Assembly: GCF_947489355.1 (NCBI RefSeq)
Contig: NZ_CANLDD010000007.1
Span: 1-64,000, forward strand
DNA from: an uncultured Microbulbifer sp.
Lineage (GTDB): Bacteria > Pseudomonadota > Gammaproteobacteria > Pseudomonadales > Cellvibrionaceae
Length of the DNA stretch: 64,000 nucleotides
Direction: 5' to 3'
Part shown: piece after piece, positions 44,269-62,395 of the stretch
How positions within the stretch are numbered: the stretch's first letter is position 1
How the letters are laid out: every line of letters begins with the position of its first letter
The notes under the pieces: generated by a model
Database searches by the model: none
What the model was told of the DNA's origin: nothing
What the model saw: the letters and a program-made list of their open reading frames with translations, nothing else
Made by a program: the position numbers and the translations under genes

Positions 44269-44589
44269 GCAGTCCCTTAAAGCCGACTTATTATAGGATT
44301 CTGCGTATTTTTAACTATTGGGACTATTGAGGCAACTTGATTCCACCCTGCCTGCCTGGGCAAAGCCCACCTTTGTCTAGCTGTTCCTAATCTGCGTATG
44401 GGGCCCAGAACCTGTCAATATGTCTCACCATTCGTTACAGAATTTTCAGTCTGTCCTGTCAGTAGCCGCAGAGACCGCTGGAGCTGCCGGGGCCCACTGT
44501 CAAAAGAGCATTGATTGGTATTGACCTCAACCTAAGTTGTGCTGCTAGTCTGCCCCGTATTGAAAGTGAGCCCGGAGGATAAGCGGCCA
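44269..44589. other. intergenic region with a MerR-type promoter
   Basis: Divergent region between the small membrane gene pair and the acetyltransferase remnant. Nothing else was recognised beyond the promoter at 44521-44551. Confidence 0.45.
44521..44551 (+). promoter_or_regulatory. third MerR-type promoter, upstream of the acetyltransferase remnant
   Basis: TTGACC (44521-44526) and TAGTCT (44546-44551) with a 19-bp spacer. TTGACCTCAA and AAGTTGT are shared with the sites at 641 and 2304. The palindrome here is CAAC-CTAA-GTTG. Confidence 0.55.
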
Positions 44590-45090
44590 ATGACAGCGGA
44601 CACACAAGGCGTTGATTTGGACAGTTACTTTGCACGTATTGGCTACCGCGGCAGGCCGGCTGCAAATCTGCAAACCCTCAAAGCACTGATTGCGCACCAT
44701 GTCGGCAGTATCCCTTTTGAGAATATCACGCCCTTTCTTGGTGATGCGGTCAAGATTGAACTGGCAGCCATTGAGGACAAACTGGTGCATCACCGGCGCG
44801 GGGGTTATTGTTTTGAGCAGAATGGGCTCCTGCGCGCGGTATTGCAGCAGAGCGGTTTTCAGGTGACGGGGCTCGCTGCCCGTGTCCTGTGGCAGATGCC
44901 CCCGGAGCATGAATCCGCACAGTCCCATATGCTACTGCGGGTTGTGTTGGGTGGGGTTCCCTATTTGCTGGATGCGGGGTTTGGCAGCAATACACCCTCA
45001 GCCCCCTTGCGGATGGATTCTGTGGCCCGGCAGAACACGCCCCACGGCGTCTATCGCCTGACATTGACCGGTGAGGAATACCTGATTTAA
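44590..45090 (+). pseudogene. arylamine N-acetyltransferase (NAT), truncated
   Basis: 166 residues against about 270-280 for intact NAT enzymes. The catalytic triad is complete: Cys74 in RRGGYCFEQN, His113 in SHMLL and Asp128 in LLDAGFGS. The frame then stops after RLTLTGEEYLI, so the third domain, which closes the active site and binds CoA, is missing. GGAGG lies 11 bases before ATG 44590, and a MerR-type promoter is 40 bases upstream. The break at about 45085 coincides with a drop in GC and the start of prophage-linked sequence, so insertion or deletion is the likely cause. Activity is doubtful. Confidence 0.8.
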
Positions 45091-53161: not shown

Positions 53162-53472
53162 TGCTGATCCTCCAGCTGTGTTAGGCGGCGATCAAGCCAC
53201 TTAATCTGCGCGCGCAGTGCGCCTGCGTCCTCGCCCTCGGAATCATCGACAGCAGCGGACGCTGTGGCCCTGACTTGGTGCGAGCTGACCCCGTGAACGT
53301 TTGTTGATCGGTCTACCTGTGTGACCTCTTCGACTACTTGAGTTAGGTTGATATCAGGCGAGGGGGCGCCCCCGGATCGGCTCCAAAGGCCCTCAAGAAA
53401 GCGCACAGCCTGTTCATTTTTTAAGAATTTGCGCCAGAAAGCGCCGTTAAAAAAAAGGGCTTTTTCGGTCAC
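53158..53472 (-). CDS. small phage protein with C-terminal coiled coil
   Basis: 104 residues. An N-terminal helical part (WRKFLKNEQAVRFLEGLWSR), an acidic linker, and a terminal heptad helix (LRAQIKWLDRRLTQLEDQQ). It overlaps its neighbours by four bases on both sides, so it is translated in step with the tail genes. Function unknown. Confidence 0.6.
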   Translation of the reverse strand: MTEKALFFNGAFWRKFLKNEQAVRFLEGLWSRSGGAPSPDINLTQVVEEVTQVDRSTNVHGVSSHQVRATASAAVDDSEGEDAGALRAQIKWLDRRLTQLEDQQ

Positions 53473-55091
53473 GATCCTTGCACCTCGATTTCGGCATAAG
53501 CCGCGAATACAGCGCGCTTAACCCCGTCAGAAATGGATATTTTTGGGGTGAATGATCGGTGCTGCCCGAGCCTCCGCCAGATCACGCGCTTGTCGTACTC
53601 GCCAGCCCCTCCGAAGCTGCGCCAAGCCTGTGACTGATCGAAGGTGCGGGTATTGCCGCTCACGTCTAGCATCACCTGGGGGACTCTCGCGGGCTCCTCT
53701 TCTTCCTCGTCATCCCGGCGGCCTCGCCGGCTACTGAGTGCTGCAGGAGCGCCAAAAGATTTGACGTGCCCGTCACCGTCTCGGACTGCATCACCACCAC
53801 GGAGAGCTGCAGGGGCCCTAAAAGACTCAACGGGACCACCGCCGCCGTTGCCACCACCGCCGCCACCTCTGTCGAATTGCTCAGACACGGTTGCCACCTC
53901 CATGTCTAGCTGCAGGCTATGCACAATGAAGCGCTTGCCGTCGCTCTGAACTTGTGGAAATTGAATCTCAGAGATAATCGGCTTATTTGCGTCTCGGTAG
54001 TAAGACAGGCTCATTTCGTATACCCGGCCGGAGTCGATAGCAGCAACGACATGCTTGCCGAATGCTTTTGCATAGAACCCGGCGCGCCAGTAGCCCTTGG
54101 CGTAGGTGCTGCGCTCATGCCAGAGTTGCGTGGCGGCGTCGTAAACGTGCGTACTTGGTATCCCTGGCTCTTCACGCTCATACCCCGAAAACTTGCGAAC
54201 TCGGCCGGGTGGAACTGTGAGCACATAGAACTGGTGCCCCTCTTCGGTATATGACCAAGCTACAGCTTTGCTCCAGTCGCCTTTTGAGATTGCATACTCC
54301 ACGGCATGAGTCGATATACGGACGGGAGTGGTGCCTTGAAGCATCCGGACGCTGCCCTCGTTGTCGAGCCACGCCACCGTCTCGTCTAGCTTGGCAACCG
54401 TCCAGGTTGCACCGAGGCCCTGCTCTATCACTGAGCCCTGCGCGCGAGTGAAGGGGAAGCTGGCGTTTCCAGAGTTGAACCATATCTCTATGGTTTCAGA
54501 CCCAAATAGCAGCAGCTGAGAGTGATCCGCAAAAACTCTCATAAGGTCATCTGGGTAGGACTCGGCGGTAGCAAAGTCTGTAGCGTCGTACACCTCGCCA
54601 TCCAGTACGGAAGAGATAAAAAACTGCCCGCGTTGTCCTGAGTTTGGGTTGCTGAAAATGAAATAGCCGTCCAATGCGGTTACTGTGCTCGCACCAGGAA
54701 ACGACTCGTCTTCTATCTCCTTTAGGCCGTCCGCCTCCGTGTAGATGTAGCCCGACTTTCCGGCGGCAATACATAGCTGCTGCCCATTGTCAGCCATGCC
54801 GACGCGCCCGGACCCACCAATGGTCCCCAAGCTATCCGTGCTGAAATGCTCGGTAATGCGGTACAGTCCTCGGTCAATAACCACGTACAGCTCACCGCTT
54901 GACGGTCGGGTGAACAGACCTCGGACCAACTTTCCTATACCGATAAGCTCTTCAAGCCCTGGGCATCCGTGTAGAACTGCGGGGGACTTCGAGCCAACCG
55001 GCGCCTCCTCGGCATACATATTGACGATACGTTCCGCGGTAAGGGGCACGGAGCGCCCCCGACCTGTCTTTGATGCGATTGGTATTCTCAT
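53469..55091 (-). CDS. packaged-DNA stabilisation protein, P22 gp10-like tail hub
   Basis: 540 residues. The N-terminal pattern (RIVNMYAEEAPVGSKSPAVL, GCPGLEEL, VRGLFTRPSSGELYVVIDRGLYRI) and repeating blades (ADHSQLLLFGSETIEIWFNSG; ETVAWLDNEGSVRML) match P22 gp10, a propeller-like protein that plugs the portal-adaptor tube. An inserted charged Gly/Pro-rich segment with repeated 'APAAL' units (about 425-460) is unusual for the family. Confidence 0.82.
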   Translation of the reverse strand: MRIPIASKTGRGRSVPLTAERIVNMYAEEAPVGSKSPAVLHGCPGLEELIGIGKLVRGLFTRPSSGELYVVIDRGLYRITEHFSTDSLGTIGGSGRVGMADNGQQLCIAAGKSGYIYTEADGLKEIEDESFPGASTVTALDGYFIFSNPNSGQRGQFFISSVLDGEVYDATDFATAESYPDDLMRVFADHSQLLLFGSETIEIWFNSGNASFPFTRAQGSVIEQGLGATWTVAKLDETVAWLDNEGSVRMLQGTTPVRISTHAVEYAISKGDWSKAVAWSYTEEGHQFYVLTVPPGRVRKFSGYEREEPGIPSTHVYDAATQLWHERSTYAKGYWRAGFYAKAFGKHVVAAIDSGRVYEMSLSYYRDANKPIISEIQFPQVQSDGKRFIVHSLQLDMEVATVSEQFDRGGGGGGNGGGGPVESFRAPAALRGGDAVRDGDGHVKSFGAPAALSSRRGRRDDEEEEEPARVPQVMLDVSGNTRTFDQSQAWRSFGGAGEYDKRVIWRRLGQHRSFTPKISISDGVKRAVFAAYAEIEVQGS

Positions 55092-55878: not shown

Positions 55879-56982
55879 TTACTGGTCGGCTTCACCGGCA
55901 ACAAACAGGCTGAGGACTGCCCAATCAAGAGCAAATTCCGTGCCCTGGCCATACTGAATCTTTGATACCTCGCGTAGCTCCTGAAACCCTACGCCGTAGA
56001 AAAATTCGTAGTCATCCTCTTTTCTTACGGTGGTCTTTGTGCGCTTCGCCCATACAGCGGCCAGGGCCTGTGAGCCGCACAGGTAGCAGGGGGCAACGTC
56101 TGCCGGGGTTTCTCCTCCGCCGACGCCTTGTAGTATCTCTATCTCTGGAATCTCTCGGACTACCACGCCGTCCCACTCGATAGAGGTTGGGCCAGAGAAC
56201 AGCGGGTTTGACTTGCCGCGCTCGCGCGCCTCTTGCCAGTAGCCGTTCTTAATCAAGTCTTCCCGCAGGTCACGAAAGGCGAAGGAAGGAACGAACATTA
56301 CAAACGACTCCATATCCTCGCCGTGCTTGTACGGTCGGATACCATCGCCGTTTCCGGCCTGGGTAGTCTGAGCCATGCGCTTTGCCAGGGAGACCACAGA
56401 ATGCGTCAGCTTGCCGTTGGTGGCATCGACGTTTGCCAGGGATGCGGCGTGGTCATCCCTCACGAAATTAGAGCGGGCAGCGCCATATAGCACTCGATCC
56501 CTGTTGTTTTTGTGCCATTTGGTGCGCTGCTCTTCGGTTGCGTCGTGGTAGCCCACCCCATTAACAGAGCCCAATGCCAGGATTATGTCGTTTCGCAGAT
56601 AGCGCATCTGCAAATCCTTTAGAGCGGACTTGCTGGCGTTTCTTATTTTGATTGCGGAGGCTTGCTCCTCTTCCACGTTTACCACGGTTGCGTCACGGAC
56701 CACGCGTACCTTGATGCTGTGGCCGTCATTGGGGAGCGCTTTCTCGTTGCCAACCAATGGCGTCTTGCCATCATTGGGTCCAGAGCTGGCATCCAGGGCT
56801 CCAAGAAGAGGAATTGTAATGGCGTCTCCTTTCTTCTTGGTGAGGTCTTCCTTCACTTGAATAATGGCGTTTTGGCTCGCCTTCATGTAGCGCTTGAATC
56901 GGTTCGAGCGCACATACTCTGCGTGTGCCTTGTCGTCCCACTGCTTGACGCGAAGAGCGTCAGAAGTGACTGTATCTGTCAT
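55879..56982 (-). CDS. major capsid protein, N4-gp56/DUF4043 family
   Basis: 367 residues. Typical stretches are KQWDDKAHAEYVRSNRFKRY, GDAITIPLLGAL near the N-terminus, the domain core FVMFVPSFAFRDLREDL, and the late GSQALAAVWAK and YGVGFQELREVSKIQYG. The family is found in podoviruses and siphoviruses whose portals resemble P22 gp1. It follows the scaffold gene by 36 bases, as expected. Confidence 0.85.
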   Translation of the reverse strand: MTDTVTSDALRVKQWDDKAHAEYVRSNRFKRYMKASQNAIIQVKEDLTKKKGDAITIPLLGALDASSGPNDGKTPLVGNEKALPNDGHSIKVRVVRDATVVNVEEEQASAIKIRNASKSALKDLQMRYLRNDIILALGSVNGVGYHDATEEQRTKWHKNNRDRVLYGAARSNFVRDDHAASLANVDATNGKLTHSVVSLAKRMAQTTQAGNGDGIRPYKHGEDMESFVMFVPSFAFRDLREDLIKNGYWQEARERGKSNPLFSGPTSIEWDGVVVREIPEIEILQGVGGGETPADVAPCYLCGSQALAAVWAKRTKTTVRKEDDYEFFYGVGFQELREVSKIQYGQGTEFALDWAVLSLFVAGEADQ

Positions 56983-57018: not shown

Positions 57019-57831
57019 TTACTTCAAAATATCTTCTAGGGAGGTCGGCCCCGACCAGTCCCCGGAATTGAGCCCGCCCTTTGCGGCAGTGGATGACACG
57101 GACGGCAAAATGGCCTGCTTTCTCTCCTCTTGGCCTTTGATTTCCGCCTCTCTCTTGGCTTTAAACTCCGCCTCAACCTTCTGCCGTACCTCAGCCTCAA
57201 TGCTCGCCTTGTAGGCGTCCACGTCCTGCAGCTTCTCCAGCTCAAGGGCCTTCTTGGCCGTTTCGTAGGCAAACTTGGCGGGGTTTGGGGCCTGGCTTAG
57301 GCCGTTGGTAATCTGCGGGTTTGCTTCCGCCATCTGCCAGAACCGAGTCTCCACCTCGTCAAAGTCGTCGTGCAGAGAGCGCATTAACTCCTGGCCCATA
57401 ATGGCCCGCTGCTCGAACATCTTGCGGTCCACTTCATGCCGTTGGGCCTCGGCTGCGGCCTTCGGGTCATCGAACCAGCTAGGCGTCTCTGCCGGCGGCT
57501 TGTCGGCCTGCTGTCCATTGCCGGCGATCTGGCTTTCCAGCTCTTGGACGCGAGTTTCTGCGGCCTGGCGCTTGGAGCGCTCGTCCTTGACGGCTTGATA
57601 GGTCCAGGGCTCCCCCTCTTTGGGCGGCTCCTCAGCCGGTTTCGCTTCACTGGTGTCTGACCCCGGCGTCGGGTCTTGCTCGTCGGCCTTTGGAGCTTCC
57701 CCCTCCTGGCCTCCAGAGCCCTCAGGCTCGCCCGTGATAGGTTCCGCAGCTTCATCGGTGGGCGTTGCCTCCGGCTCCACTTCTGGAATCTCTTTATCAC
57801 TCAGTAAATCGGCTGTGCTGTACTCGCTCAT
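57019..57831 (-). CDS. capsid scaffold protein
   Basis: 270 residues. A very acidic, proline-rich N-terminal half (EIPEVEPEATPTDEAAEP...) leads to long charged helices (LESQIAGNG; ALELEKLQDVDAYKASIEAE, then RQKVEAEFKAKREAEIKGQ). This composition and the place between portal and capsid genes define phage scaffolds. ATG 57831 has GAGG five bases upstream; an open frame extending to 57894 runs into a terminator hairpin. Confidence 0.78.
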   Translation of the reverse strand: MSEYSTADLLSDKEIPEVEPEATPTDEAAEPITGEPEGSGGQEGEAPKADEQDPTPGSDTSEAKPAEEPPKEGEPWTYQAVKDERSKRQAAETRVQELESQIAGNGQQADKPPAETPSWFDDPKAAAEAQRHEVDRKMFEQRAIMGQELMRSLHDDFDEVETRFWQMAEANPQITNGLSQAPNPAKFAYETAKKALELEKLQDVDAYKASIEAEVRQKVEAEFKAKREAEIKGQEERKQAILPSVSSTAAKGGLNSGDWSGPTSLEDILK

Positions 57832-57894
57832 ATTTTCCTCTTCTCGACCGTTTACGCGTCGTCCGCTTGCGCCCGTTCCCCGGCGTCGGGGCAC

Positions 57895-57941: not shown

Positions 57942-59549
57942 TTAAATATTGAAATTCGGCCTTGTGTCCGGGTACCTAGCGGCCACCACGTTCTCTATCT
58001 CGGTCTGTTCGGCCTCCAGTAGCTTCTTGGCGGTGTCCGCTTGTGTGTTCTCTATCTTCGCCTTTAGCTCTTCAAGGCCAAGCTCGGCTGCCACTTGCTG
58101 TAGCTGCTGCTGTATCTGCTGCATCTGTGCGGCCATCTGCGCCTGCTTAGGGTCGCCCTTGATCTTTTCGAGCACCTTGTCTTTATTCCGGAGGCTGGAG
58201 AGCTGCAGAACAACTTCAAACGGTACGTGCTGGGGGCCGTACATCTTGGCCAGCTCTGTGATCACCTCGAATTGCTCTTGCTGTACGGTTACCACGTCCG
58301 GCGCCTCGTCGATCTTGATATCCACGTCAAGCTCAGCGACTTGGTTTCGCACTTCGTGGACTTCACCTAGCCGAGGGTCCTGAGCGGCCGTCATTTCCTG
58401 TAGCGCAACCTGTGCTTGCTCGCTTCCCTCCTGGGCCTTCTCCTGCAGACGCTGCCCAACGGTTACCGGCTGATTCAAGCCAACAAACTTTAGGTTGTCC
58501 TCGTCGTCAGTAACGCGCACCCACCGTTCGTTGTTCCAGAATTGCTTGATGCGGTTCCATATCTGCCGGTAACAGCGGCGCTTCCAGTGTCGGTGTGCAT
58601 CCAGAAGAGGCCCTATCTCTAGCTGTGCGCTGTTCTGTATGGTCCTGAGCGCCCTGCCACTCATCTGTGCGCCTTCACTGGAAAGGCCGCTTAAGATGTT
58701 ACTGGCGCCGCGTGACTCCATTTCCGACTTGGCTTCCTGCAGAAGCTGGAGCTGGCCCATGCCAACGTCGGTATTTTCCCGTATCTGAACCCGTCCGTTC
58801 TCCAGGCTGCCCGGAGGAACCTCCACGGCACCATCCGCTTTTTTAAGCTGGTCTACAGTGTTTCTCGGATTAGTTAGAGAGCCCTGTTCGTACAAGACCT
58901 GCTTTACCGAAAGACTGTGCAGGGCCTTTGAGCGCCTGTGGTTTATCTCGTCCTGCAGCCCTAGCAAAGAACTGACAAGGCCGTAGCGCTCGTTGTCTCT
59001 TGTTATGTAGGCGTGTACAAGCTCCATAGGGCATTCAGGTTCGCCGTGCTCATCGAGGAGCGGGCAGGGCCTGGGGTCCAGCAAGAACAGGTCCCCGCTA
59101 AAGTGCGCAACGTACCATTGCCCCTCACACAGGAAGTAATGCTGGCAGACCTTGATACGCTTGCGCTTGCCGTCCACCCAGCGCGGCTTATCCTCGAAGG
59201 TTTCATCGGCGCCGTAGTTCGCCTGCACCTCGGTTATCTGATCCGACTTTTCCGGGTATTTCCTTTTGGCTTCCCCGAGGTCCATCCAGACAACCATGCC
59301 CTTGTAGCTGCAGTCGGAGAAATCACGCTCGCGGCTGTGTGGGTCAAAGTAGCAACGATCGAAAGGTACAAACTTCACCTCTATCTCAACCTCTCCCCGC
59401 TTCTCCACAGGCTCGATAATGGCCCCGGCGTACCCCTCGACCAGCATGCCCTGCTCAAATACAGAGCTGGCCACCTGATCAAATCCCACGTTGTCAGCAA
59501 CGTAGCGGAGTGCATCGGTGACCGCGTCTGCCGATTGCTCGTCGTTCAT
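57942..59549 (-). pseudogene. portal protein, N-terminally truncated by deletion
   Basis: 535 residues of a P22 gp1-type portal (intact relatives are about 650-725). It begins at what is normally an internal site: MNDEQSADAVTDALRYVADN, then FEQGMLVEGYAGAIIEPV, and DRCYFDPHSRERDFSD, which are well-known middle blocks. The helical barrel segment at the end (IQQQLQQVAAELGLEELKAK) is intact. The codons just upstream of ATG 59549 still read TYPRT in the same frame (59550-59564), as expected before MNDEQ in complete portals, but then change into holin sequence with a stop at about 59625. The first 90-120 residues and the whole terminase region are therefore deleted. Confidence 0.8.
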
Positions 59550-60019
59550 GGTGCGCGGGTACGTTTGTCGATCGATCGCATGGCTCCCATCCCCAACATC
59601 CCACCCAGAATGCCCAATACATCAGTGAGGCCAAGGTCGGGATATGCGGGGATAGCCGGTAAAGGCTGCTCGAGGCTAGGGTCAAATCCGGAATAGAGCA
59701 CAATACAGTGGTAAATCCACACCCCAGTCAGCGCCATCGCCTTTGGGATAAAAGCAAGTCCAAGGCAGCTCGCGCAGATCCAACCAACCGCCGGGCGCCA
59801 ACCGGCGACAAACACGCTCTTATGCTGGGCCTCAGCCTTGTTGACTTCCAACTGGCCCAACAACAACTGTACCTGGGCGTTTAGCGCTGCCATCTCACCC
59901 TTCTGCTTTAGCTCCTCCAGTTTGCGCACCTCTTCAACACGCTTTATTGGGTCTGGCCATATACGCTCAATTGCCATCTTGCCAGCGTCGAATAGTGCTG
60001 TTAGTGGGTCAAAGCTCAT
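59546..60019 (-). CDS. holin, GTA-type 3TM family
   Basis: 157 residues. An amphipathic N-terminal helix region (KRVEEVRKLEELKQKGEMAA) is followed by SVFVAGWRPAVGWICASCLG and two further membrane helices, ending GILGGMLGMGAMRSIDK, which is the holin_3TM pattern. The last few residues (RTRAP) do not look like the family and lie at the deletion junction with the portal gene; its TGA overlaps the portal ATG. It follows the endolysin by 43 bases. Confidence 0.8.
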   Translation of the reverse strand: MSFDPLTALFDAGKMAIERIWPDPIKRVEEVRKLEELKQKGEMAALNAQVQLLLGQLEVNKAEAQHKSVFVAGWRPAVGWICASCLGLAFIPKAMALTGVWIYHCIVLYSGFDPSLEQPLPAIPAYPDLGLTDVLGILGGMLGMGAMRSIDKRTRAP

Positions 60020-60062: not shown

Positions 60063-60446
60063 TTACTGGGGGTAGCTCCAGATTGTGGGCCCTTCACGCT
60101 TGCCCGAAATAGCTCCAAGATCATCCAGGTGCAGGAATCTGCCCTTGTGTGGACCATGCTGCTTCACTCCAATACCTGTAAACCCTTCCTCTATAGCGAT
60201 CCCCAGCAGCTCATAGGCACGCCCACCAGCAACTGATACATCCACAGCCTGTCCGGTAGTGTGTGTCATGGTGGAGCCGATACTGGCGCAGTGGCCTTGG
60301 CAGCGATAGCCAGAGGTGATCACCATAGGCTTGGCAAACCGCTCCCTGACTCTGATTAACCGGCGCAGCGTGTCATCCGAAAAGTTGAGTTTCCCGCAAC
60401 AGCGGCAGGACAACTCCTCTTCCGTGAAGTAGGCGTTCTTGAACAT
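60063..60446 (-). CDS. endolysin, peptidase M15-type
   Basis: 127 residues from ATG 60446. It has the M15A peptidase features: N-terminal EEELSCRCCGKL, SGYRC (45-49), zinc ligands His62 and Asp69 in THTTGQAVDV, and a third ligand in FLHLDD (His106). These enzymes cut peptide cross-links of peptidoglycan. No signal sequence is seen, so the holin must release it. A TTG 29 codons upstream is in frame but lies beyond a terminator. It is first in the lysis pair. Confidence 0.82.
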   Translation of the reverse strand: MFKNAYFTEEELSCRCCGKLNFSDDTLRRLIRVRERFAKPMVITSGYRCQGHCASIGSTMTHTTGQAVDVSVAGGRAYELLGIAIEEGFTGIGVKQHGPHKGRFLHLDDLGAISGKREGPTIWSYPQ

Positions 60447-60462
60447 GGGGTTACCAGATACG

Positions 60463-60486
60463 AAAAAGCCCGCACTGGGCGGGCTT
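60463..60486 (-). terminator. leftward intrinsic terminator ahead of the lysis genes
   Basis: AAGCCCGC-ACTGG-GCGGGCTT with an A-run on the left, so on the minus strand it is a stem followed by T. Placed just upstream of the endolysin start, it would be read through only by an antiterminated polymerase. Confidence 0.75.
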
Positions 60487-60557
60487 AGGATTATTTCGTC
60501 TATATTTTTGAACGTGGCCAAAACAACTTGCAAGCGGTCTCCGCTCTGGAGAAGACT

Positions 60558-60965
60558 ATGGATGACATCACCCGGGTCAAATACCTTCCCATTGCCATGA
60601 AGGTTATAGGCGCAACTTATGTCTTTGCCATATATCCGATGATGTCATGGATATGGCCTGAAGGATGGGGATGGACTCCGTCACAACATGAGTACGAACT
60701 AATTCTCGCGGGGGTATTCATAACTTTGGGCGCATTCTTATTTATTGCCGCCCAAAATCCTGCTTCCAACGTCATCCTGATCTGGTTAACTATCACCTTG
60801 AATATAGTTGTTGGTGTCATCATGCTCTTGTTGGTATTAGCTGATGAAACCGAACAGGAAAATCTGCTTGGTAAAATTCCCGTAATGTTTTTGACTTCAG
60901 GAATTCTCTGGCGTCTGATGCCTAATCATCGTTTTAAGAAAGGATGGGAGAACACTGCTCTTTAA
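60558..60965 (+). CDS. membrane protein, lysogenic-conversion type gene
   Basis: 135 residues with four predicted membrane helices (about 12-31, 50-67, 73-96 and 103-120). ATG 60558 has GGAG six bases upstream. It is transcribed against the lysis genes and has no recognised family beyond small DUF-type membrane proteins. Opposite orientation within the late region suggests expression from the prophage. Confidence 0.6.
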   Translation: MDDITRVKYLPIAMKVIGATYVFAIYPMMSWIWPEGWGWTPSQHEYELILAGVFITLGAFLFIAAQNPASNVILIWLTITLNIVVGVIMLLLVLADETEQENLLGKIPVMFLTSGILWRLMPNHRFKKGWENTAL

Positions 60966-61346: not shown

Positions 61347-61685
61347 ATGGATGCTACCTTTGTCGAAATGCCACCCTTTGCACGCTTCCGTAGTGACTAC
61401 TTGGACGACGATAGTTTTCAAGGGCTACAGCAGAAGCTACTGGATAACCCGGAAGCGGGTAATGAAATACCCGGCACAGGAGGGCTTCGCAAGCTCCGCT
61501 TTGCCGACAAGCGCCGGGGAAAAGGTACCCGTGGTGGCATCCGAATCATCTACTACTGGTACAGAAAAAACGAACTATTTTGGCTATTCACCTTATTCGA
61601 CAAGGATGAAGCCAGTGACCTAACCCCTGACCAAAAGAAGATCCTGAAAGAGATGCTGAAAACCGAAATCAAGGCGAGGAAGTAA
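61347..61685 (+). CDS. higB: HigB/RelE-type toxin
   Basis: 112 residues of the RelE/HigB fold: FRSDYLDDDSFQGLQQKLLD, GGLRKLRFADKRRGKGTRGGIRIIYYWY (a basic catalytic strand pair), LFWLFTLFDKDEASDL and a C-terminal helix KKILKEMLKTEIKA. Such toxins cut mRNA on the ribosome. The start codon appears to be at or within one base of the transcription start, so the message would be leaderless. The antitoxin gene starts two bases after the stop, in the toxin-first order of higBA. Confidence 0.82.
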   Translation: MDATFVEMPPFARFRSDYLDDDSFQGLQQKLLDNPEAGNEIPGTGGLRKLRFADKRRGKGTRGGIRIIYYWYRKNELFWLFTLFDKDEASDLTPDQKKILKEMLKTEIKARK

Positions 61686-61687
61686 CC

Positions 61688-61996
61688 ATGGCCAAGCGCG
61701 ATATTTTCTCAGAAATGCTGGAGGGCATGGAGGCGCTACGGCACGAACGCGAGGGCAAGATGACCCTGCGCACACACAAAGTAACTAAGCAGCCACAGGT
61801 CGTTGCCAAGCCTGCGGAAATTCGCCGTGTGCGGAAGAAACTACGCATGTCTCAAACGGTGTTTGCAGCGGCGCTGAGAGCGAATAAGCGCACTTATGAG
61901 CGTTGGGAAAAAGAGGGTACAAAAGGCGCTCAAGCGACCTTACTGAAATTGATCGACAAACATCCAGAGCTGATCGAAGAATTGCAATCTATGTGA
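61688..61996 (+). CDS. higA: HigA-type (XRE) antitoxin
   Basis: 102 residues. A C-terminal helix-turn-helix (RRVRKKLRMSQTVFAAALRA, then NKRTYERWEKEG) as in the NadS/HigA group, with a flexible basic N-terminus. It should neutralise HigB and bind the palindrome over the promoter. The sequence AGGAAGTAACC before the ATG gives the binding site within the end of higB, so the two are coupled. Confidence 0.82.
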   Translation: MAKRDIFSEMLEGMEALRHEREGKMTLRTHKVTKQPQVVAKPAEIRRVRKKLRMSQTVFAAALRANKRTYERWEKEGTKGAQATLLKLIDKHPELIEELQSM

Positions 61997-62011: not shown

Positions 62012-62395
62012 TCAAGCAGCCATTGCCCGCTTGCGGTACAGGATGGTGATTTCAGCCTCGATGCGCTTGCAGTGATCTCGCACCTTGGTCATGCTCAGCC
62101 TCAATCGGCGAGCCACATCCTGCAACTCCCAGAAACTATGGTAGCGAAGCCAAAAGACATCTAGTTCCTCCCGAACTGCGGCGGAACCCCGGTGCTCCAG
62201 CATCACTTGCAGCCAATCCCTGACCACCATATCCGTGTTATCAGCCCGCTTCTTATCTGGTGCTCCTTCCTGGCGTTCATGCACCATAGTTGTAAATGGC
62301 GCCTTGCGAGGATAGTTCACTGCATCGCCCGGACGCTCACAATAGACAAGGGCCCACTCCCACAACAGCTCGCGGATTCCAATTGCATCTGTCAC
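62012..62395 (-). CDS. phage late antiterminator, Q-like
   Basis: 127 residues starting at GTG 62395, which overlaps the stop of the upstream gene by four bases. The C-terminal half (WELQDVARRLRLSMTKVRDHCK, then RIEAEITILYRKRA) is a sigma-70-like helix-turn-helix found in several phage antitermination proteins. Position after NinB and YbcO and before the lysis cassette is exactly that of Q in lambdoid phages. No close relative is identified, so the name rests on layout and helix pattern. Confidence 0.65.
   Translation of the reverse strand: MTDAIGIRELLWEWALVYCERPGDAVNYPRKAPFTTMVHERQEGAPDKKRADNTDMVVRDWLQVMLEHRGSAAVREELDVFWLRYHSFWELQDVARRLRLSMTKVRDHCKRIEAEITILYRKRAMAA

What the first reader, a model, noticed from the sequence alone, without database searches (positions are those of the whole stretch)
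59546..59625. Terminase genes deleted: holin gene joined to the inside of the portal gene
Seen: no terminase subunit gene is found where expected between lysis genes and portal. The portal begins with a normally internal block. The codons just upstream of its ATG (59550-59564) still read TYPRT in portal frame, then change to holin sequence, and the holin's last residues are atypical. The junction is near 59565-59580, at a CGATCGATCG stretch. Consequence: no packaging motor and an incomplete portal, so the capsids cannot be filled by this prophage alone.
Basis: partly seen in the sequence, partly recalled or inferred. Interest (0 to 1): 0.7.

Follow-up and report, generated by a model that had tools for sequence, protein, structure and literature searches.

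The report
Prophage lacking its DNA-packaging genes
A dormant virus in a bacterial chromosome has lost, in what looks like one clean cut of about 2.5 kb, both genes of its DNA-packaging motor and the start of the gene for the ring that DNA enters through, so it is probably crippled; losses of this kind are well known in cryptic prophages.

Summary
On the minus strand the holin gene (60019-59546) runs straight into a 535-aa P22-like portal gene (59549-57942). In the nearest relative found (same genus, portal 71% identical) the order is holin, small ORF, terminase small subunit, terminase large subunit, 638-aa portal; 2,474 bp separate the two points that touch here. The join lies at 59559-59562, just downstream of the CGATCGATCG stretch (59569-59578), which still encodes conserved holin residues. 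Missing: the small ORF, both terminase genes, the holin's last residues and about 89 portal residues. Of 110 related loci with at least 2 kb upstream (106 distinct portals), 109 matched the portal N-terminus and 105 had a recognised terminase upstream. Searches found no terminase on this contig and did not find the missing segment elsewhere in the draft genome. Best explanation: a deletion left a defective prophage that may lyse its host on induction but cannot package itself. Rescue by co-resident prophages is not excluded. It is a new example of a known kind, with low interest. A more interesting side lead, a phage element split between contigs in Caulobacteraceae, is listed under things noticed.

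The parts
59559..59562 (-). deletion join: last base of identity to the holin of relative G039 is 59562, first portal-identical codon starts at 59558
   Evidence: codon-level comparison with G039 holin and portal
59546..60019 (-). holin (GTA_holin_3TM, phrog_3427), 157 aa, its tail shortened and replaced by TRAP
57942..59549 (-). P22-like portal gene, 535 aa, lacking about 89 N-terminal residues; starts at an ATG overlapping the holin stop (ATGA)
59569..59578 (.). CGATCGATCG stretch, inside the holin codons, not the join itself
60063..60533 (-). endolysin (Peptidase_M15_3); the listed TTG start lies upstream of a terminator-like stem at 60486-60466, so an internal ATG is the likelier start (inference)
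57019..57894 (-). scaffold-position protein, 51% identical to its G039 counterpart; no PHROG or Pfam match
55879..56982 (-). major capsid protein (Phage_capsid_3, phrog_334), 367 aa as in G039, 77% identical
53469..55091 (-). head-closure / stabilisation protein (phrog_578), 540 aa against 773 in G039
62012..62395 (-). antitermination protein Q-like
45070..45084 (+). probable left att core GGTGAGGAATACCTG inside an N-acetyltransferase gene (44539-45090); right copy at contig C7 74264-74278, outside the window

Best explanation
A single deletion of about 2.5 kb (2,474 bp by the layout of relative G039) removed the end of the holin gene, a small ORF, both terminase genes and the first 86 codons of the portal gene, leaving an otherwise largely open temperate podovirus-like prophage of about 29.2 kb. 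Shown: the missing segments, the join, and that searches do not find the segment elsewhere in the assembly. Inferred: that this happened in one event by non-homologous joining; that the new holin stop and an ATG at old codon 90 allow a shortened portal to be made by coupled translation; that the shortened portal does not work; and that induction would give replication and lysis with no packaged progeny of its own.
For: Relative G039 has holin, small ORF, TerS, TerL and a 638-aa portal in a row. Prophage CBW1004C-Prop1 and phages Pan3 and Pam5 have terminase then a full-length portal, and a Melvirus with a related holin has holin, two ORFs, TerL, portal. In 110 loci with at least 2 kb upstream (of 147 fetched; 106 distinct portals), 109 match the portal from residue 40 or earlier and 105 have a TerL-related frame upstream. 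The missing portal N-terminus has no match elsewhere in the genome, and neither does G039's TerL. DNA identity changes from holin to portal within 4 bases. The two break regions in G039 share no word longer than 5 bases within 40 bases on either side. In the model of a full-length relative the missing segment holds four confident helices (block pLDDT 80-89). In P22 the wing domain is residues 6-319 and 417-524 (passages of PMC12005531).
Against: The genome is a draft of 264 contigs and no reads or second strain were at hand. The ancestor's exact terminase type and layout are unknown; CBW1004C-Prop1 has a different TerL family from G039. Decay has not obviously followed: seven head, neck and ejection genes keep open frames near G039's lengths. 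Some other genes differ in length from G039's (head closure 540 against 773 aa, 355 against 401, tail fibre 253 against 283 with only the first 148 matching, Rha 221 against 280), so this deletion may not be the only difference that matters.
Confidence: 0.86

Rival explanations
1. The prophage is defective alone but is packaged or exploited in trans by co-resident prophages with their own terminases, as in a defective-prophage pool.
For: The genome holds six TerL-profile places and three TerS places 60-63% identical to G039's TerS. The C2 prophage has a complete P22-like portal, TerL and TerS and a similar M15 endolysin; its TerL and G039's both match phrog_2. In E. coli O157, Sp4 with a disrupted terminase small-subunit gene was found packaged, most likely by Sp14 (passages of PMC2669165).
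Against: In O157 the cos sequences of Sp4 and Sp14 are described as identical. Here the C2 TerL has no Pfam match while G039's has two, and a DNA pattern for the DDDFEAD tail, present in the TerL of all seven close relatives checked, found no site in this genome. The portal also lacks an ordered segment.
Confidence: 0.1
2. Assembly artefact: a chimeric or collapsed join within contig C7.
For: Draft assembly of 264 contigs; no read data available.
Against: No long shared word at the two break regions in G039. The skipped segment would have to sit elsewhere, yet G039's TerL and the portal N-terminus have no other match; the TerS hits on C50 and C90 lie beside C2-type TerLs, and the window portal matches only C7 and C2 in the genome.
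Confidence: 0.05
3. A lineage that lost packaging under selection and keeps making empty heads or lysis for the host's benefit.
For: Capsid, neck and lysis genes are open; the new holin stop and portal start overlap as ATGA.
Against: No second case: none among the 110 loci; of 95 other genomes only G039 (684-aa open frame) and G042 (25% identity, 715-aa frame) matched; of 368 other genomes only G393 (643-aa frame). One case cannot show selection.
Confidence: 0.05

Closest known systems
Cryptic (incomplete) prophages with lost terminase and portal genes (PMC7744054)
   Same: That study reports terminase and portal among the genes preferentially lost in incomplete prophages (passages)
   Different: Here most other genes are open, and the loss is one cut whose join can be placed to 4 bases
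E. coli O157 Sakai prophage Sp4 (PMC2669165)
   Same: Terminase defect in a polylysogen; packaging in trans reported (passages)
   Different: Sp4's small-subunit gene is disrupted by an insertion sequence; here both subunits and the portal start are gone
Prophage CBW1004C-Prop1 and the prophage region of genome G039
   Same: Related portal, scaffold, capsid and neck genes; portals 63% and 71% identical
   Different: Both keep terminase genes and full-length portals
Cyanophages Pan3 and Pam1 (portal structures 9vyf and 7eep)
   Same: Best solved relatives of this portal type by sequence and by fold
   Different: Pan3 has its terminase next to a 620-aa portal; Pam1's annotation was not fetched, its portal chain is 596 aa

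Membership tests
P22-like portal protein (PF16510, phrog_156) | Sequence match to the family profile | tested here: met
   PF16510 E 8.4e-76; phrog_156 E 1.5e-72
P22-like portal protein (PF16510, phrog_156) | Complete N-terminal part | tested here: not met
   Match starts at profile position 93 of 681; relatives G039 and C2 start at 7 and 8
Functional tailed-phage packaging module | Terminase small and large subunit genes in the prophage | tested here: not met
   No terminase among the 30 prophage ORFs scanned; no TerL-profile hit on C7; no hit of G039's TerS on C7
Functional tailed-phage packaging module | Packages its own DNA after induction | not testable with these tools
   needs a culture
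Defective (cryptic) prophage | Recognisable prophage with integrase and att sites that lacks an essential phage gene | tested here: met
   Integrase, 15-bp repeat in the two halves of an N-acetyltransferase gene, no terminase found
Gene transfer agent | Head genes conserved across hosts as a fixed element that packages host DNA | tested here: inconclusive
   No other genome with this arrangement was found; the prophage still has integrase and replication genes; packaging was not testable

The most novel reading that the evidence does not exclude
The prophage is being turned into a non-transmitting particle or lysis maker: packaging was cut out, a short portal is still translated through a new coupled start, and on induction it releases unfilled heads, or heads filled by a neighbour's motor, that act as decoys or benefit kin.
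Probability: 0.05. Interest if true: 0.55.

Novelty: new member of a known kind. Interest (0 to 1): 0.2.

Why it matters
As a single defective prophage it matters little beyond correct annotation: it should be called defective, and its portal should not be used as a full-length reference. It is a clean example of loss of little more than the packaging module, useful for asking whether resident prophages complement each other.

Tried and rejected
Terminase moved elsewhere: not supported by profile and protein searches of the own genome. The tool warned for that an empty answer without a known positive shows nothing by itself; the family searches had controls. Normal short-portal lineage: not supported. 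Join within CGATCGATCG: rejected at codon level. An extension of the portal match to 59579 was set aside because 59569-59562 is identical to the G039 holin, whereas read as portal only a D is shared there. A plain local DNA alignment of the holin end gave a spurious match and was replaced by the protein and codon comparison. The first scans with the window portal alone found only distant (22-23%) viral relatives and nothing in genome contigs; the alignment query worked. The AlphaFold model of the short portal was mediocre (mean pLDDT 70.0, pTM 0.53) and is used only to confirm the fold by search; its lower TM-scores against Pan3 (0.44 against 0.62 for the full-length relative) are not claimed as evidence. 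A promoter scan found no promoter-like site between holin and portal. Paper searches: searches were seen as listings; passages were read in PMC12005531, PMC2669165, PMC7744054 and PMC4936722 (a helper-satellite pair, not used further); no paper was read whole.

Full report
What is there. The window's right part holds the late genes of a prophage on the minus strand. In transcription order: Q-like antiterminator (62395-62012), M15-type endolysin (60533-60063), GTA_holin_3TM holin (60019-59546), P22-like portal (59549-57942), scaffold-position protein, major capsid protein, further neck genes, DNA-ejection protein and a tail-fibre gene. The prophage continues beyond the window on contig C7, through replication, repressor, Erf and exonuclease genes to an integrase at C7 73033-74097. 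A 15-bp repeat at 45070-45084 and C7 74264-74278 lies in the two halves of an N-acetyltransferase gene (PF00797 in both halves), which gives a prophage of about 29.2 kb.

The missing segment. I searched 95 other related genomes; G039, of the same genus, was the only one with a close portal (71% identical), and G042 had a 25% match. In G039 the holin is followed by a small ORF, TerS (PF03592), TerL (PF04466 and PF17288) and a 638-aa portal. In the window the holin runs directly into a 535-aa portal. At codon level the window equals the G039 holin through GACAAACG (59569-59562) and the G039 portal from codon 87, CCG (59558); three bases (59561-59559) are unassigned. In G039 these two points are 2,474 bp apart, and the two regions share no word longer than 5 bases within 40 bases on either side.

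How unusual is it among relatives? I dropped 37 because less than 2 kb lay upstream of the portal match. The remaining 110 hold 106 distinct portal sequences. Of the 110, 109 matched the G039 portal from residue 40 or earlier. The exception, L095, has a break in the frame: tblastn matched it from residue 8. 105 of 110 had a TerL-related frame upstream. Of the five without, L039 has a TerL that my recruitment missed (phrog_2). The other four (L060, L061, L069, L073) are Caulobacteraceae MAGs whose TerL lies on another contig; their portals match from residue 7-14. So a terminase away from the portal does occur in distant relatives, but not together with a shortened portal. Annotated phages agree with the usual order: CBW1004C-Prop1, Pan3 and Pam5 have terminase genes and then portals of 625, 620 and 659 aa.

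Is the terminase elsewhere? I scanned 30 of the prophage's ORFs against PHROGs, among them all 8 of 300 aa or more between 45,321 and 74,097 in the non-overlapping list; none is a terminase. Shorter ORFs were not all scanned. In the own genome the TerL profile phrog_2 found six places, on C1, C35, C2, C50, C90 and C69, and none on C7; phrog_38 found none. G039's TerL found nothing, its TerS found three places on C2, C90 and C50, and its portal N-terminus matched only the window portal itself. So the segment appears absent from this assembly rather than moved.

What the loss does. In the model of the full-length relative L099 the missing portal part holds four helices with block pLDDT of 80-89. 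By the passages of PMC12005531 that I read, P22's portal wing is residues 6-319 and 417-524, so the lost part should belong to the wing (inference). The best solved relatives are the Pan3 and Pam1 portals. Without TerS and TerL no packaging motor can form from this prophage, and a portal without part of its wing is unlikely to form a working ring; both are inferences. The ATG used now stands where the four aligned relatives have R, Q or P and no methionine, and it overlaps the holin stop as ATGA, so coupled translation of a short portal is possible but not shown.

State of the rest. Compared with G039, the capsid protein (367 and 367 aa), the scaffold-position protein (291 and 274) and five neck or ejection proteins (177/177, 113/113, 115/115, 104/127, 193/192) are open and similar in length. 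The head-closure protein (540 against 773), a 355-aa protein (401 in G039), the tail-fibre protein (253 against 283) and Rha (221 against 280) differ more; I cannot say whether these are lesions or ordinary divergence.

Could neighbours help? The C2 prophage of the same genome has portal, TerL and TerS. The resident TerS copies are 60-63% identical to G039's, and both the C2 and the G039 TerL match phrog_2. A similar rescue was reported for E. coli O157 Sp4 and Sp14 (passages of PMC2669165). Against this, the TerL of all seven close relatives checked (CBW1004C-Prop1, G039 and L097-L101) ends in a conserved DDDFEAD tail; a 21-base degenerate pattern for it, allowing one mismatch, found one site in G039 and none in G000. 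CBW1004C-Prop1 and G039 have different TerL families by Pfam yet share this tail, which suggests (inference) that it is fitted to the portal type.

Verdict. The observation and the reading of it hold, with the join moved by a few bases. The general phenomenon is known: the passages of PMC7744054 that I read report preferential loss of terminase and portal genes in incomplete prophages. I rate this a new member of a known kind, of low interest.

Noticed in passing
portal loci L060, L061, L069, L073, L076 (and L096); TerL loci L177-L183: Six Caulobacteraceae MAGs carry one P22-like portal family (64-77% identical in the pairs printed), with a related capsid gene (67-82%) in the four loci where it was seen. 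In 5 of 5 genomes searched for TerL (G461-G465) a TerL of one family (66-83% identical, 46-53% to Pam5) lies on a different contig number from the portal, and four of these loci have 3.9-6 kb upstream without it; in the sixth (L096) a TerL of the same family sits directly upstream of the portal. Upstream neighbours read as chromosomal genes (an adenylosuccinate-synthetase family match beside L069's portal). This may be a domesticated phage split over two or more loci, possibly an undescribed podovirus-type gene transfer agent; being MAG contigs, the split needs closed genomes (the listing of one paper search, showed no such report).
   Followed up: partly
L003 15418-16749, L012 15631-16965, L097-L101: TerLs of different Pfam families (Terminase_6N in CBW1004C-Prop1, Terminase_3 in G039) share a near-identical C-terminal tail YTDDDFEADDSWKMA next to the same kind of portal: a possible portal-docking tail exchanged as a module. 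Part of its end overlaps the portal start codon, which may also conserve it.
   Followed up: partly
window 44539-45090 and contig C7 74237-74605: The prophage splits an arylamine N-acetyltransferase-type gene (PF00797 in both halves), next to a gene that reads as parC (recalled, not searched).
   Followed up: yes
window 60528-60965 and 61347-61996, + strand: A DUF6632 gene and a pair that reads like a HigBA toxin-antitoxin (recalled resemblance, not searched) sit against the direction of the late operon between Q and lysis.
   Followed up: no
L014 15522-15899 and window 60063-60533: The C2 prophage of the same genome has a closely similar M15 endolysin, so the two prophages seem to share modules (compared by eye).
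   Followed up: no
L022 (C50), L023 (C90), L014 (C2): TerL starts on three contigs are nearly identical by eye, so the genome may hold several related prophages of the C2 type.
   Followed up: no
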